This document shows positions 46,283 to 54,382 of a stretch of 64,000 bases of DNA, one piece after another. A program made the translations under genes and the position numbers. How positions within the stretch are numbered: the stretch's first letter is position 1; every line of letters starts with the position of its first letter. The DNA lies in NCBI GenBank assembly GCA_019828545.1, contig JACVRA010000044.1:620001-684000 (forward strand), read 5' to 3'. This DNA is from Paracamarosporium sp. OC-R06-R3 (Eukaryota; Ascomycota; Dothideomycetes; Pleosporales; Didymosphaeriaceae). The notes under the pieces are model-generated. The model was given only the letters and a program-made list of their open reading frames with translations. It did not search any database and had not been told where the DNA came from.

Positions 46283-47237
46283 CTACTTCTCTTCGGGTTG
46301 ATCAATGTTCTTGAGATCGATTCCCCAAACATTTCCGGCGACAGCCCTACTCCCAGTCCCATCCGCACTTATGTCTGAAATGTCCTGATCCATCGACATG
46401 TTCCAATTTTCTGGTGCGTTTATGTTCCCTGCCAAAGAGAGACCCGCGCTCGTTGCCTTGACGCCCTTAATCTTTTGCCCTGTACGCGCAAAAATTACTT
46501 CTGAAATTGCTGCGTCGCTGGTATCAATAAGAGACTGCTTTGATCTTTTACGTGCGTTGAGATCTTTAATCTGCTCTCGGTTGGTCTCATCTGCCTCTTC
46601 CGCAACTGGTGGCAATTGGCTTAAGCATCTTTCAATAGAATCTACATCTTTCTCTGCTTTGACCTTCACCTGCACTATGCTTTTCTCTTGCTGTTGGAGC
46701 ATCATGTTTTTCATTTCTCTCATGCTGGAGACCTGTTCGGCGGCAGTCATACTACTCTAACGTTAGCAGGCAGCTAAAAAGCTACTTCACTGTTCAGTGA
46801 ATGATCACTTACACATTTGAGGCATCAAGAGCGACATTCAGAGTATCCTTGGTGTCTCTCAGCTGACTTCGAATACTTTCAATCTTGTCATCTCCAAAAT
46901 GAACCTTGAACCGCGTCGCTAAAGACATCTTGTCTCCTGCTGTGTCTTTCGTCCATTTGCTAAGCAAATTCCCGAATGAAGTGCAAATCGCATTGCAACT
47001 CTCCAGTGCTTGCTCAACTCCTTTATACAATAGGATATTGGATTTAGGGCCGCCTTCGATGGCAACAACGAGTTGCTCGAGTATCTTCTGCAAGATCTGA
47101 AGATCGCTTCTCATATGAGCGATAGTCTTCGGTGCATCTTTGATACCATTAACTGTCTTTGCAAGGAATTGTGTGCTCTGGATCGCAGCAGTTGCTATAG
47201 CGATTATGCCGGAAACAGTGCTAAGTGGATCGCTCAT
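46283..47237 (-). CDS. HeLo-like domain protein with two C-terminal amyloid-type motifs (candidate cell-death effector)
   Basis: Two exons on the minus strand, 47237-46813 and 46754-46283, with a 58 bp intron give 298 residues. An equally good acceptor 3 nt downstream (exon from 46751) would give 297. Residues 1-140 are helical and begin MSDPLSTVSGIIAIATAAIQ, the signature of the fungal STAND N-terminal/HeLo-like domain, continuing with KTIAHMRSDLQILQKILEQL. A glutamine-rich helical region follows. The C-terminus carries two spaced motifs: GLSLAGNINAPENW (AGN at 250-252) and SRAVAGNVWGIDLK (AGN at 281-283), 31 residues apart. The related HET-S and HELLP proteins form pores or disrupt membranes once the C-terminal amyloid is templated by an NLR. 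The divergent NLR at 47754 has a similar motif at its N-terminus. Confidence 0.75.
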
Positions 47238-47753
47238 GGCAAGCAGTCTGGGCAGGCGACAGACCTGCACAGACGATTTCTGTTGGTGATTAATACAGTT
47301 TAAATGCAAAGCTGTTGCGATTCAGCTGAATCGCCTCAGAATGACCCCACCATACAGATACGAGCTGTGAAATAGCCTTGATCGCCATGTGATTGGGTGA
47401 CATCCATGTTAGCGATAATCCCGCACCAACAATCCTAGTCTGTCAATAAGATTGGCCTATCATACGCGAAATCGCCCACCGGTCAGCAGGCAACAGGGCA
47501 AAGATGACGAGGCTTTCACACTGAAGTATGTAGACTGAACAATGAAATTCAAAGTCATGACTGCTTCTGCATATATCTTTTTTGTGCAGAACAGTGAGCC
47601 ATAGTCCGCAGCGACGTCGTTAATGTCCGACGATACATACGGTCTTCGACCTCGACTCGGAGCACATGTACATGCTAGCGAAGAACTACCGGAGACCCAA
47701 AAGCCGCGTACGACGTAGCGTTTAGTTTCTAATTATCGTAAAGTCTATCCAAA
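47238..47753. other. Bidirectional promoter of the effector/NLR pair
   Basis: 516 bp separate the two divergent start codons. No open coding sequence or repeat. Co-regulation of the effector and its candidate receptor is expected from this arrangement; no specific operator was recognised. Confidence 0.5.
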
Positions 47754-50700
47754 ATGGCAGATACGCCTTTCCAGAATCAATTCATTCACAATTTACACGC
47801 CCGAGATGGCGCTTTCGTGTTCGCAGGCAACAACTACGGCACAATTCATCACGAGTACAGTGGTTCTAGTGATGGTAATTGACACGAATTCCTGTCTACT
47901 GCTTCGCTAATATTGATAAAGTAAGTCCAGCCATGAAGGTCAAAATCTGTCGGGATGCCTTGTTCGTCACCGATTCACTGGTCGATCGTGCAGATCTTAT
48001 CCATATGAAAGGTGAAAGAGCGTCAGGTACATGTGAATGGATCTTACAAAATACCACTTACCAGGAATGGTCTTCCCGGGAAAATGGACTGCTCTGGGTC
48101 TCCGGTTCCCCTGGGCAAGGAAAGACAATGATATCAATATTCCTTACCCAAGTGTGGGAGACCCAGGCAGAAACTAAGGATGGGGTTTTGTTCTTCTTCT
48201 GCACTCACCAAGATGAGAATCGCAACAATGCAGAAGCAGTTCTTCGGGGGCTCCTTTACCAAATTCTTACCAAACGACCCGAGCTTGTGGACCATTTTTG
48301 GCTATATCTTGAAGGTGCTGCGGATGAGGAAGAGAATACGAAGAAAGAAGAAAACCAGGAGAAAAAGAAAGACAAAAAGAGATACCAATACGTCCTTGAA
48401 TCCGAGGCAACTCTATGGACGATTTTTTTGCACTGCGTACAAGATCCTAAATTTGGCAAGGTTATTTTCCTTCTTGATGGTCTCGACGAGTGCATCGACA
48501 ATCGTTTTGTGCGAAGATTTGTTACCTTGTTTTCCAGAAATTCGACTATTTCTCCGGGTAATACGTTCAAGATGATCGTCATCAGCCGCAATCTTGTTCA
48601 CTTACACGGACAAGCTCATGTGAAATTAGATCCGGAACAAAGAGTCCATGTGGAGAGTGACATAGAACGGTTTATTTCTATCAGGGTTGCAGAGATACCT
48701 CAAATACCTGGACTCGATGACGATTTTCGAGCACATATCAAGGAAACGTTATTGGAACGATCAAAAGGGACGTTTCTATGGGTTGGCTTTGTCGTAAGCG
48801 AGCTTTCTCGTAAGGAAACGGTGTCCGAAATGAAGGAAGCCCTGAGAACTGTTCCGGTTGGACTTAACGCAATGTACGACCGAATGATCCTCCAGATCGA
48901 GCAATCCCATCGCGGCCTGAGCTCCAAGATACTGCGTTGGGTCGCATTTGCTACTCGTCGACTGACCGTGGAAGAGCTTGCCAATGCGGTGGGAGTCGAA
49001 GCAACGGATGACCTCAGCCTGAACGTGGTGATCCATGACAAAATCGTGCACTGTGGTCGACTCTTACTTGTCGAAAAAGGAACGGTTGATCTTGTCCATC
49101 AGTCGGCAAGAGACTATCTACTTCGCAAAGAAGTGGACAGTGATCCGATACTGGAACAATTTCGCTTGAAAGCAGATGAATCTCACTATGAGATGGCACA
49201 TTCTTGTATAGAAGCGTTGGCTGCTTCAAGTCGGCCTTTTTACAAGATATATTGGGAAAACAGAAGCCACAATAAAATTGCGAAGATATATCTACGCGAC
49301 GATGCACGCGCCGATAGCAAAAGACCTGCTGACCAATGTAGTAATCTTCACTATGAAGATTTCGCGCTACACAGTTACGCGACATTTGCCTGGTGGAAGC
49401 ACGTAGTCTCTGCTGGAAGCGTAGGGATCAAGCTTCTTGATCGTTTCGATTTTCTGGTTGCCAGGAAACATCTATTCTGGGATTGCTTACGCGGTTTTGA
49501 ACCGGTAAGACCCTGGTCTGACCCACACTTGGTTGACGAAGCATCGAGATTGCCTCTCTTCTGCGCACTTGGCATCACTACCTGGATCAAAAAACTTCTG
49601 GAAGCCAAGAGGTGGATGTACGTGTGGTGGTATAAGCCTACAGCCAACCAAAGGTCTGCCAGAGGAGATACACTACTATATATCGCGTCTTTACATGGGC
49701 GGAAGGATGTGGTGCAGCTATTGCTTCAACACGGCGCGGATCCCAATCAACAGAGCTATTTCAAAAATAACCCATTTCCCCTTGACATAGCATTACGCAA
49801 GGATCACCACGACATCGCTACACTCCTACTCGACGCTGGCGCGAAGATACACGCAAATAGGGATGTCGGATCGACGGCATTGGCGCATGCGGCATTCTCT
49901 GGATCCTTAGAGACCGTAAAGCTGATAACTAGATACGCTTCATATGCACACAAGAATAGGGAAGTAGGGACGATCGCACTCCACAATGCTGTTAGGAATA
50001 ATCATGAATCAGTTGCCACATTTCTGCTCAACTACGGAGTCAACATAGACGCTGTCATCAAGGATGGATCAACAGCGCTGCATCAGGCAGCTGCCTACGG
50101 ACACCAGCGCATGGCCCTATTCCTTATCGAACGCGGAGCGAACATACATGCCACTGACGCCACAGGGAGAACAGCACTACACAGTGCATCTACTATAGGA
50201 AGCGAGAAGATGGCCAGTTTACTCCTCAAAAATGGCGCCCACGCAAACGCCAAGATACATGATATTCCACTTGCTCTATATGACACTGTCATACACAAAA
50301 CAGATTACCACAATTCCAAGTATCAGGGGCATCTGGACGTGGCCAAAACTCTATTGGAATGTCTCCTTGGCTCCTCTGACATGAGGGAATCTGTTCAAGA
50401 ATGCTTCGAGATAGCTTTAGGGGAATGGAACCACAGAATGGCGCAATTATTGGTCGCACATGGTGCTAAACCCAATACAAGCGGGTACATTTATAATGAA
50501 ACTCCTTCGAAGCGTCTATCTCCTCTTCATGTGGCCTTGCAATTGGAGAACGAGGTACTCGTTGAGCAGTGTCTTCTCAACAAGACAGACGCTGACGATA
50601 CCTTTTACGACATCACTCCGTTGTATTTCGCCGCCTGGATTGGAAACGAGAAGATAGTACAACTGTTGCTTGAGTACAGGGCTGATGTCAATCGAAAAAG

Positions 50701-50986
50701 CGGTGTTCTGTACTTGCATGAGAGACGCGAACGTGAAGTATATACACGCTACAATATGATTGACACGACGCCGAGAAATAGCTTCCGGCTTCGTGGCGGA
50801 ACAGCTCTGCATGCTGCTTCTTATCACGGGTTCGAATCGATCGTACATCTGTTGATCAGACGTGGGGCAGACGTCAATGCTTTATGTCGGGAATCTCACA
50901 CTCCGATGTTTCATGCAAGCAAGCAGAAGCGTGTTGAAGTGGTCAACATACTACAGTCGGCTGGGGCCGACCCGGTTGAGTCGTAA
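47754..50986 (+). CDS. NLR: N-terminal amyloid-type motif, NACHT and ankyrin repeats
   Basis: Two exons, 47754-47874 and 47931-50986, with a 56 bp intron give 1058 residues. The first exon encodes 40 residues ending HEYSGSSD and contains GAFVFAGNNYGTIH (residues 19-32; AGN at 24-26). Without this exon the long frame would start upstream of its own splice acceptor, in intron. The NACHT domain starts after about residue 60, with the Walker A motif GSPGQGKT (99-106) and Walker B FLLDGLDE (220-227). A Lys/Glu-rich insert sits near residue 175-193. From about residue 610 to the end, roughly ten ankyrin repeats occur, for example DTLLYIASLHGRKDVVQLLL and TALHQAAAYGHQRMALFLIE. The protein is a cytosolic sensor candidate. 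The motif matches those of the divergent HeLo-like effector, suggesting a receptor-effector pair. Confidence 0.85.
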
Positions 50987-51777: not shown

Positions 51778-53557
51778 CTACACTTTCACAGTCGTAATCT
51801 CATCAGCCCTACTACTCCTCCCACTCTTCTCACTCTTTTCCTTCTCCACCTCACTCCCACTTCTACGTTCCACCGGACTCTCATTCCCCTCCTCAGCCGC
51901 CACCTCATCCAGTACCTTCTTCTCAGCCCCAACCTCCTCATCCACCCTCCTCAACGCATTCCCCCCCTCCTCCGTCCTCCCATCCGCACTCGCCTTGTTC
52001 TTCTTTCTAATACTCCAACCCCCTCTCCAACCAACCCACCCCGTCTCCCACGGCCCCCTAGCAAGCATAACCAGAAACGCGCCCCCGCAGAACCCCACGC
52101 TCGCACTCCCGCTCCCAATCCACCCCGCTGCCGCATAGATATGGCTCGAAGCCGACGTCCCCATGAGCTGCCCGCAGAACGTCGCCACCATAAACGCAGT
52201 ATTAACGCCGTTCCTGCGCATAGGCTCGATCGCATAGATAGCGCTGCGGTTCGCGACTTGCGCCGTCTGCATCCCGAAGTCGAGGAAGATGGCCTGGCAG
52301 ATGGGTCCCGCGACGGTGAAGCTGCCCAGGTATGTGCCTAGGCAGATACCTAGCATGGCGAACGAAAGGCCGAGCAGGACGGAGAAGTGCGGGACGAATT
52401 TATCAGTCACGTTGCGGGCGTAGATGGGGCCAAGCAGCATGCCTCCGATGCCGATGAGACCAAACAAGCCGATAATCAGGGGGTCATAGAAATACGGGGT
52501 CCCAGCGAGCAAGAACGTAAGCGTAGTCCAGAACCCCGTGAAGATAGAGCTGGTGAAGAAGCCCGCGGCGCAGGCCTGCACGAGCACGGGGTGGCGGCCC
52601 AGCATCTGCACGATGCTCCAGAGGAGCTTGAAGTAGTTTAGTTTCTTGTTGGTCGCCGGGTAGTCGGGCATGAAGTTCCAGAGGAGGATGAAGATGAGGT
52701 ATTGGATGCCGAGGGCCATCCAGAAGACGGCGCGCCAGGTGACGTAGTTTGAGATTGTGCCTGAGATTACGCGGGCGACGAGGATGCCGAGGGTGAGGCC
52801 CGAGACGACGACGGAGAGGGCGGCTGCGCGGCGGTTTGGGGGCGCGAGGTCCCCGACGAGAGGGAGCATGAGTTGGGGGGTTACGGTTGTGATGGAGACT
52901 AGGAAGGATATTGCGGTGAATGTGCCTAAGTTTGAAGTTAAACATAGGCCGAGCCTGTATCAAGTCAGCTTCTTTTCATTTTTATTTCCTCTCATGCTCA
53001 ATGCTCGTTGTATTTTCCCAATTCATTTTTTCTCGGTGCTGAACACCGTCACAGCAACACTCCGCAGAACCACCAACAAAGAAACACACCCACCAAAGCG
53101 TAGCCGTGACCCCGACCAACCCCACGACAAACGGCCTCCTAGGCAGCAGATCCCCCAACGGACACAAAAACAACAACCCCGATGCATACCCCGCCTGCAT
53201 GACGGTCGGAATCTGCGACACCTGCTCATACCGGACGCCAAAGTCGTGCGCCAAGATATTCAGAATAGGATGGCTGTAGTACAGATTCGCGACGGTGAAG
53301 CCCGCCGAGAAGGCAAACAGGATGTTCATGCTCATGGAGAACTGCGGCGGTTTTTCGGGATTCCAACGACATCGTGGGGGCACGTAATTCACAGTGTTGT
53401 AAACTTTGCGCAGGGTCGAAATGTTTTCCTTCTTTGTTGTTGATGTTGGTGCTGAGGATGCGGATTCAGACGACGTAGATGGTGGCGGCGGCGGGGATGT
53501 GGCGTCCGGGGGACGTGCAGCGCCCGTCGTCGCAGGGCCCTTTTCGTGAGAGCTCAT
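51778..53557 (-). CDS. MFS transporter
   Basis: Two exons on the minus strand, 53557-53094 and 52954-51778, with a 139 bp intron give 546 residues. The junction falls in a membrane helix (ATLW|LGLCLTSNLG), which the unspliced frame would break. The N-terminal 70 residues are Pro/Ser-rich and cytosolic. Twelve-helix character is visible, for example LFAFSAGFTVANLYYSHPIL, LMLPLVGDLAPPNRRAAALS (a motif-like loop) and FILLWNFMPDYP. The C-terminus is a Glu/Ser-rich tail. It resembles the YnfM/general-substrate MFS group; the substrate is unknown. No adjacent biosynthetic gene suggests a role. Confidence 0.83.
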
Positions 53558-54382
53558 CGTGGCGCAGAAACAGAAATGCGCATCCAAGCCATTGCCCGGC
53601 ACCTGTTACACGAAAAGGGAAATGCAAATAAAGACTCGAGGACAATGGATGGGGGCTCTGAAACAGGGGAAATAAACGATGGAATCCATGACGGTGCGCG
53701 ACATCGCGTATCTCTTCGGCAATGAGGGGAGATGCCCGGTGCCGATGTCTCACGTAAAGCGGGAACCGGGACATAAGAAGATGAACGTCAAAGATTTCGA
53801 CTTTGAAAAATGGCATATATACGCTATCTAGGCATAATTAAGCTTGTAATAAACGACTTTGCAACTGCTGTTAGTGTAAATGCGTAAGATTGAGGCGTTA
53901 TTACGAGGTAGCTGTTTGAGTGCTGATAGTTTTGGCGATGAGTATGGACGGTGACCTGTGCGCTGATTCCTACCTCCCGGTCACGTGGCCGGTCAACGTG
54001 AGAGACCGATATCCGCAAGAGATTGCGCTATCCTCGGAAAAGCGATGCGCTAGGTAGGTTTGAGGTGGAGATAACCTTATTTACGCGACGGATGACGGAT
54101 GCTGACCTGGAGTAGGGGCAAGCGGTGTGAACATTGCATGAGTTCAAAGAGGTTACATGTTACCATTGGACATGGATGTGAAATCGCGACAATTGCGTGA
54201 TTGAAGAACAATTGAGCTCGAAAATCTCATATGGAAGCATTGACCGTATAGTTCAAGCGGTTACTACATACGATTCGAGTTCTAGATGTTGTTCCGGATC
54301 GACTAATATCCTATATTTGTGCATCGCGTCATATCAGGATTGTGGGTATGCGATATCGGAATTGTTGCATGCATGGCGAGAT
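53558..54382. other. Intergenic region, no gene seen
   Basis: About 825 bp between the MFS start and the Hgh1 stop. Open frames are short and unconvincing. Confidence 0.45.

What the first reader, a model, noticed from the sequence alone, without database searches (positions are those of the whole stretch)
46283..50986. Divergent HeLo-like effector and NACHT-ankyrin NLR that share an amyloid-type motif: a candidate HET-S/NWD2-like system
Seen in sequence: a 298-residue HeLo-like domain protein and a 1058-residue NACHT-ankyrin NLR are divergently transcribed from 516 bp. The effector's C-terminus has SRAVAGNVWGIDLK and GLSLAGNINAPENW; the NLR N-terminus has GAFVFAGNNYGTIH. All share AGN with nearby aromatic and Gly residues. 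Established: fungal HET-S/NWD2 and HELLP/PNT1 systems pair an NLR carrying one motif copy with a neighbouring membrane-disrupting effector carrying one or two copies, and use amyloid templating. Inference: this is such a pair, with an ankyrin sensor and a motif family I cannot name. Possibly new.
Basis: partly seen in the sequence, partly recalled or inferred. Interest (0 to 1): 0.92.

Follow-up and report, generated by a model that had tools for sequence, protein, structure and literature searches.

The report
Fungal NLR and amyloid-triggered killer pair
Two neighbouring genes in a filamentous fungus encode an immune-type sensor and a membrane-attacking partner that share a short amyloid-forming tag, very probably another example of the known fungal alarm system in which a sensor switches on self-killing by passing on a protein fold.

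Summary
A 298-aa HeLo-like protein (46283-47237, minus) and a 1058-aa NACHT-ankyrin NLR (47754-50986, plus) diverge from a 516-bp gap. The AGN peptides are the second half of a 21-residue motif: one copy in NLR exon 1 (r0), two at the effector C-terminus (r1, r2; 9-residue loop). [quoted passage not shown] A profile made only from NLR homologues' N-termini picks r2 and r1 as its two best sites in the effector (0 of 500 shuffles). A family profile has the solved Podospora amyloid 6EKA as best PDB match (E 4e-4 to 1e-3). AlphaFold2 gives two stacked three-strand rungs. Both copies occur in 31 of 45 full-length relatives, a Karstenula orthologue among them. The same fungus has an unlinked effector with two copies and two unlinked NACHT-ankyrin NLRs with one. 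Most likely mechanism: NLR oligomerisation nucleates amyloid at r0, which templates r1-r2 and releases the HeLo-like killer. A new member of a known kind; only a divergent motif variant and a possible several-NLR network go beyond it. Amyloid formation and killing are inferred, not shown.

The parts
46283..47237 (-). Effector gene, 298 aa; exon 1 46813-47237, intron 46755-46812, exon 2 46283-46754 including the stop
   Evidence: Intron enumeration and translation; Karstenula orthologue P0001 of the same length, 53% identical over 99%
46821..47234 (-). HeLo-like (PF17111) helical domain, residues 2-139
   Evidence: Pfam E 5e-23; AF2 helical bundle of the orthologue, with MLKL among its structural matches
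46421..46483 (-). Amyloid motif r1, effector residues 233-253 (Gln235 = position 3, Gly251 = position 19)
   Evidence: Profile scan, alignments, AF2 strands
46328..46393 (-). Amyloid motif r2, effector residues 263-284 (Gln265 = position 3, Gly282 = position 19; one extra residue before position 15)
   Evidence: Profile scan, alignments, AF2 strands
47238..47753 (.). 516-bp divergent intergenic region
   Evidence: Read from the sequence
47754..50986 (+). NLR gene, 1058 aa; exon 1 47754-47874, intron 47875-47930, exon 2 47931-50986
   Evidence: Intron enumeration and translation; 120 listed homologues of residues 1-480, 28-50% identical
47772..47834 (+). Amyloid motif r0, NLR residues 7-27 (Gln9 = position 3, Gly25 = position 19)
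   Evidence: Profile scan; homologous N-termini
48026..48589 (+). NACHT-type NTPase core (NPHP3_N/NACHT)
   Evidence: Pfam; genome search
48908..49144 (+). Winged-helix part of the NOD (GPIID_WHD)
   Evidence: Pfam
49664..50956 (+). Ankyrin repeats, presumed sensor
   Evidence: Pfam Ank families

Best explanation
A two-gene cell-death switch of the HET-S/NWD2 and HELLF/FNT1 type, using a HET-s-related amyloid motif of the Gln-3 (HRAM2-like) branch. The ankyrin repeats of the NLR sense an unknown cue; the NACHT domain oligomerises; clustered r0 motifs nucleate a beta-solenoid amyloid; this templates the r1 and r2 repeats of the HeLo-like effector into two rungs of the same fold; the HeLo-like bundle is then released to attack the cell's own membrane. 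Shown here: gene structure, domains, motif identity and conservation. Shown indirectly: recurrence of the pairing in other fungi. Predicted: the two-rung fold. Inferred from the characterised systems: ligand sensing, amyloid templating, membrane attack, cell death.
For: Domains. Profile cross-recognition, 0 of 500 and 0 of 2000 shuffles. Orthologue P0001 keeps 14 of 21 r1, 12 of 22 r2 and 84 of 142 HeLo-like residues, so the motifs are kept about as well as the domain. In an alignment of four effectors 7 of 10 invariant columns lie in the motifs, but one row is a C-terminal fragment, so HeLo-like columns could not count. 31 of 45 full-length relatives carry both copies. Over 66 effector motifs (two with one residue dropped to fit) the published core positions are hydrophobic, counting Ala and Thr (5, 8, 10, 18: 66 of 66; 16: 61 of 66), and position 19 is Gly in 65 of 66. 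In 33 effectors opposite charges at the same position of r1 and r2 outnumber like charges 47 to 4, better than any of 12 shifted registers, as in-register stacking predicts (relatives are not independent). Family profile versus PDB: best hit 6EKA over both repeats, E 3.7e-4 with the window's exon 2 in the profile, 0.001 without any window row. AF2 of the window's exon 2: two rungs of three strands, mean pLDDT 82. NLR and effector on one contig elsewhere, with consecutive locus tags in Monosporascus sp. GIB2.
Against: No amyloid or killing test exists for these proteins. Pfam's HET-s prion profile PF11558 does not match the window's exon 2 at E<=1 or the genome at E<=10 (where no control genome rang either), and is not among the 25 of 51 families shown for 33 relatives; but only 38 of 155 published HRAM proteins match it. 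A profile from 60 main-clade effector motifs scores the window's r0 at only 6.3 bits (38 of 2000 shuffles reach it). Position 16 of r1 is Ser, and the Arg/Lys preferred at position 15 is present only in r2. The window has just one in-register opposite-charge pair, and its orthologue none. The 4-sequence profile gives 6EKA at E 0.73, and the 72-residue piece alone finds nothing. The structural match to HET-s (2rnm) is weak (Foldseek rank 3, E 0.55).
Confidence: 0.87

Rival explanations
1. The motifs are real HRAMs but the window effector is wired to several NLRs (window NLR plus the unlinked NACHT-ankyrin NLRs on contigs C3 and C97), so the pair is one branch of a small network rather than a closed two-component switch.
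For: Of 57 NLR upstream regions scanned, C3 and C97 stand out with r0 motifs (25.0 and 22.9 bits; best unrelated site 14.8). Both NLRs are NACHT-ankyrin, and no PF17111 match at E<=0.001 lies on either contig. C97 r0 scores 45 against window r2, above its 30 and 31 against the C90 effector. Non-adjacent signalling is suspected in print (PMC9815663 section 24).
Against: Motif likeness does not show cross-seeding; HET-s and HELLF share a backbone fold but do not cross-seed (PMC7889193, passage). The C90 effector offers an alternative partner, and C3 r0 scores alike against both effectors.
Confidence: 0.35
2. A functionless or decayed pair: the motifs persist but signalling is lost.
For: r0 has drifted from the main-clade effector consensus; no expression data were available.
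Against: Both reading frames are intact with clean introns and both motifs are kept in the Karstenula orthologue. r0 fits its own neighbour's r1 and r2 (22 and 27) better than the C90 motifs (16 and 14).
Confidence: 0.06
3. Chance likeness of low-complexity Gly/Ala/Asn stretches with no amyloid role.
For: The motifs are short and AGN alone is common.
Against: Shuffle controls, copy number and spacing kept in 31 of 45 full-length relatives, and the PDB profile match to a solved amyloid.
Confidence: 0.02

Closest known systems
HRAM2-bearing HeLo-like effector / NLR pairs (Daskalov, Dyrka and Saupe 2015, PMC4518210)
   Same: Two 21-residue repeats at the C-terminus of a HeLo-like protein under 310 aa, 6-18 residue loop, one copy at the N-terminus of the adjacent NLR, Gln at position 3, Gly at 19, hydrophobic core pattern. 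Two species that its table lists with HRAM2 as their only class, A. fumigatus and C. cassiicola, show this motif in my hits (NLR P0006, effector P0143); in P0006 the Gln sits one place earlier and position 3 is Val.
   Different: The window variant has Ala at 10 and 18, Asn at 20 and an extra residue in r2, shared with Karstenula P0001; it alone has Lys(r1)/Asp(r2) at position 4, where r1 is acidic in 29 and r2 basic in 26 of 33 effectors and P0001 is uncharged. Class assignment rests on the paper's text and table; the logos are figures I could not see.
HELLF/FNT1 of Podospora anserina (HRAM5; solved amyloid 6EKA)
   Same: HeLo-like domain plus two repeats; best PDB sequence match over both repeats.
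   Different: FNT1 is NB-ARC-TPR (PMC7885112, passage); this NLR is NACHT-ankyrin. That 6EKA is HELLF is my recall, consistent with its chromosome 3 label and with hellf = Pa_3_9900 (PMC9815663, passage).
HET-S/NWD2 of Podospora anserina (HRAM1)
   Same: Divergently transcribed effector and NACHT NLR, two copies and one copy (PMC3321046, passages).
   Different: HeLo rather than HeLo-like domain, WD rather than ankyrin repeats, Asn rather than Gln at position 3.
HELLP/PNT1 (PP motif) and sigma (sesA/sesB/HET-eN) systems
   Same: Same logic; HET-eN has NACHT and ankyrin repeats.
   Different: Different motifs; effectors carry a single PP or sigma motif rather than two HRAM repeats.

Membership tests
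HRAM effector/NLR pair | HeLo, HeLo-like or sesA domain protein of at most 310 aa | tested here: met
   298 aa, PF17111 E 5e-23, SesA 1.5e-6
HRAM effector/NLR pair | Two copies of the motif in the last 80 residues, loop of 6-18 residues | tested here: met
   r1 233-253, r2 263-284, 9-residue loop
HRAM effector/NLR pair | Hydrophobic at 5, 8, 10, 16, 18 and Gly at 19 | tested here: met
   r0 I,L,A,V,A,G and r2 I,I,A,A,A,G (with one extra residue); r1 I,V,A,Ser,A,G, so one of 15 core positions departs
HRAM effector/NLR pair | Preference for Arg/Lys at position 15 | tested here: inconclusive
   Arg in r2 only; Leu in r1, Phe in r0. A preference, not a rule, in the paper
HRAM effector/NLR pair | Adjacent NLR with a single N-terminal copy (98 of 155 in the paper) | tested here: met
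   r0 at NLR residues 7-27, 516 bp between the start codons
HRAM effector/NLR pair | Charge complementarity between r1 and r2 | tested here: met
   Over 33 effectors 47 opposite, 4 like in register. Thin for the window itself: one opposite pair (Lys236/Asp266), none in P0001
HRAM effector/NLR pair | Beta-solenoid amyloid fold | not testable with these tools
   Predicted two rungs and profile match to solved amyloid 6EKA; no experiment
HRAM2 subclass | Gln at position 3 | tested here: met
   Gln in r0, r1 and r2; 56 of 66 effector motifs. The paper's wider grouping puts another class in the Gln-3 supergroup too, so the subclass is likely, not certain
HET-s prion domain in the Pfam sense (PF11558) | Match to the Pfam profile | tested here: not met
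   No match in window exon 2 at E<=1 or in the genome at E<=10 (no control genome rang); not among the 25 of 51 families shown for 33 relatives
HRAM1 (HET-S/NWD2) | Asn at position 3 (class rule); WD-repeat NLR (in NWD2) | tested here: not met
   Gln at 3; ankyrin repeats
PP motif | NxGxQxGxN core | tested here: not met
   Absent on reading both proteins
sigma motif | About 40-residue motif of repeated submotifs | not tested
   No profile at hand

The most novel reading that the evidence does not exclude
The window pair belongs to a divergent HRAM2 sub-branch (Ala-Gly-Asn third arch and an inserted r2 residue, shared with Karstenula; a swapped charge pair of its own) which keeps its amyloid channel insulated from a second, unlinked HRAM2 effector in the same nucleus, while two unlinked ankyrin NLRs can feed one or both effectors. 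It would be a natural test bed for how near-identical amyloid folds stay separate or converge. (Lowered from 0.30 on re-checking, because the swapped charge pair is not kept in the orthologue.)
Probability: 0.26. Interest if true: 0.5.

Novelty: new member of a known kind. Interest (0 to 1): 0.33.

Why it matters
It adds a complete, intact HRAM pair with an ankyrin sensor. More usefully it shows, in one genome, a linked pair, an unlinked effector and two unlinked ankyrin NLRs of the same motif branch. Two effectors with related but differently charged repeats give ready material for asking what sets amyloid seeding barriers. It also shows that a reader working from raw sequence can spot such a system from half a motif.

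Tried and rejected

Rows dropped and limits: one search lists 120 of 298 NLR matches and one search lists 120 of 156 effector matches. It rests on equal 'longest contig' lengths, not on contig names. Of its 8 coincidences, Curvularia (P0163/P0017) has locus tags far apart, a PP-like effector end and no motif in the NLR as annotated; Paraphoma's NLR (P0071) shows no clear r0; four effectors are metagenome pieces ending before the motif region, and only one of their four NLRs (P0021) shows r0. So Monosporascus and Xylaria scruposa are the two cases with the motif seen on both sides. Of 45 full-length effector relatives, 14 lack two copies; by eye 11 of these 14 have a PP-like end and the rest look truncated or unclear. 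The genome scan covered ~2-kb upstream regions of 56 of 93 PF24883 matches (some matches are pieces of one gene) plus one PF05729-only match, three of them cut by contig ends. NB-ARC genes were not searched in this genome.
Full report
What is there. The window lies in a 43-Mb, 337-contig genome. Domain content, introns and relatives point to a filamentous ascomycete, perhaps near Pleosporales (inference from the closest effector, Karstenula rhodostoma; taxonomy not looked up). On the minus strand 46283-47237 encodes a 298-residue protein with a PF17111 HeLo-like domain; on the plus strand 47754-50986 encodes a 1058-residue NACHT-ankyrin NLR; 516 bp separate the start codons. Each gene needs one short intron.

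Aligning the N-termini of 11 further NLR homologues (among them Aspergillus fumigatus, Talaromyces, Pyrenophora, Bipolaris, Xylaria and Monosporascus) with the window r0 and six effector repeats gives a motif that runs with few gaps from Gln at position 3 through Ile 5, position 8, Ala/Thr 10 to Gly 19. Not all r0s have Gln at 3; in A. fumigatus it sits one place earlier. A profile from those 11 homologue r0 motifs, none from the window, scores NLR residue 9 at 19.8 bits (0 of 2000 shuffles) and ranks effector residues 265 and 235 first and second (17.2 and 12.2 bits; 0 of 500 shuffles at the same rank). The converse test is weaker: a profile from 60 main-clade effector motifs finds r0 in 15 of 45 NLR homologues with an N-terminal extension of 28-110 residues (of 120 aligned), but gives the window's r0 only 6.3 bits, a level reached by 38 of 2000 shuffles. 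The window r0 is thus divergent, and nearer to its own neighbour's repeats (22, 27) than to the C90 ones (16, 14).

Conservation. The orthologue P0001 from Karstenula (53% identical, same length) keeps both copies; identities are 84/142 in the HeLo-like part, 39/90 in the linker, 14/21 in r1 and 12/22 in r2. A profile search with four effectors gave 156 relatives, 120 of them listed; of the 45 full-length ones among those, 31 (P0001 included) have both copies near the C-terminus, and by eye 11 of the other 14 end in a PP-like motif instead. Charges at equal positions of r1 and r2 are opposite 47 times and alike 4 times over 33 effectors, and no shifted register does as well. The sequences are related, so this is not a count of independent events; the window contributes one opposite pair and P0001 none. 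The published HRAM set shows the same charge rule (PMC4518210).

Link to a solved amyloid. The family profile has as its best PDB match 6EKA, a 78-residue Podospora anserina chromosome 3 protein, over both repeats (E 3.7e-4 with the window's exon 2 among 33 rows; 0.001 for an alignment without window rows; E 0.73 with a 4-row profile; nothing for the 72-residue piece alone). I recall 6EKA as the HELLF amyloid; the label and the gene number quoted in PMC9815663 agree. AlphaFold2 on the window's exon 2 gives two rungs of three strands at effector residues about 236-253 and 266-284 (mean pLDDT 82). The orthologue's model shows the same plus an N-terminal helical bundle (mean pLDDT 72) whose matches include MLKL and plant CC domains, with the caution due to helical bundles.

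Family. PMC4518210 (the whole held text read in five parts, figures not held) defines five HRAM classes. Hydrophobic positions 5, 8, 10, 16, 18, Gly 19, two repeats with a 6-18 residue loop, and one copy in the adjacent NLR are met here, with one core position of 15 departing; the Arg/Lys preference at 15 is met only in r2. Gln at 3 marks HRAM2. That paper's table lists HRAM2 as the only class for A. fumigatus and Corynespora cassiicola, and my hits from those species (NLR P0006, effector P0143) carry this motif. PF11558 does not match (not among the families shown), but it matched only 38 of 155 HRAM proteins in that paper. HET-S and NWD2 are also divergently transcribed, and NACHT-ankyrin NLRs with such motifs are known (PMC3321046 and PMC4986451, passages only).

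The rest of the genome. Among 57 further NLR upstream regions scanned, two NACHT-ankyrin NLRs (contigs C3 and C97) have a strong r0 in a short first exon (25.0 and 22.9 bits; best unrelated site 14.8). A second HeLo-like protein on C90 carries two copies. Contig C90 has no NACHT or NPHP3_N match, and I saw no NLR-like long frame in 19 kb around the gene, though NB-ARC was not searched. No PF17111 match at E<=0.001 lies on C3 or C97. Karstenula too has both effector types (P0001, P0128). NLR and effector of this branch lie together elsewhere: consecutive locus tags in Monosporascus sp. GIB2 and one contig length in Xylaria scruposa, each with the motif on both sides; equal contig lengths also in Paraphoma, Curvularia and four metagenome contigs, where one or both motifs were not seen.

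How it most likely works. By the NWD2/HET-S and FNT1/HELLF models (PMC5485727, part 1 of 4 and passages; PMC7889193, passages): ligand binding by the repeats, NACHT oligomerisation, amyloid nucleation at r0, templating of r1-r2, unmasking of the HeLo-like bundle, membrane damage and death of the cell. Only the parts list and the motif identity are shown here.

Verdict. A real, intact, new member of the HRAM class of fungal amyloid signalling pairs. The claim of an unnamed motif family falls. What remains of some interest is the divergent variant and its place in a small set of linked and unlinked partners. Literature searches made; I did not find this locus itself described, but did not search for it by name.

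Noticed in passing
L014 / L022, G000:C90:114571-115005 (minus) and its downstream exon: A second HeLo-like protein (300 aa) with two Gln-3 HRAM copies; no NACHT or NPHP3_N match on its contig and no NLR-like long frame seen in 19 kb around it: apparently an orphan effector (NB-ARC not searched).
   Followed up: partly
L042 (G000:C3 about 64.5 kb) and L046 (G000:C97 about 26.4 kb): Two NACHT-ankyrin NLRs with an HRAM2-like r0 in a short first exon but no PF17111 match on their contigs: apparently orphan receptors that may signal to the C90 or the window effector.
   Followed up: partly
L012 / L036, G000:C306 about 620 kb: A HeLo-like protein ending in a PP-type motif (by eye) beside a divergent short frame with a second PP-type motif; no full-length NLR frame among the ORFs of at least 140 aa in the 8 kb fetched, so the receptor may be broken or missing. 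HELLP/PNT1-like.
   Followed up: partly
Effector relatives P0154, P0155, P0157-P0160, P0162-P0164, P0167, P0170: Relatives of the effector domain, six of these eleven from Penicillium, have by eye a PP-like C-terminus in place of the two HRAM copies, suggesting swaps of amyloid motif on one killer domain.
   Followed up: no
Effector position 4 of r1/r2 (effector residues 236 and 266): The charge pair between r1 and r2 is reversed relative to most of the main clade (Lys/Asp instead of acidic/basic); the Karstenula orthologue is uncharged there. A possible seeding-barrier determinant.
   Followed up: partly
window 51778-52869 and 52982-53602 (minus): Frames that read by eye like a major-facilitator transporter lie next to the NLR; not examined further.
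   Followed up: no
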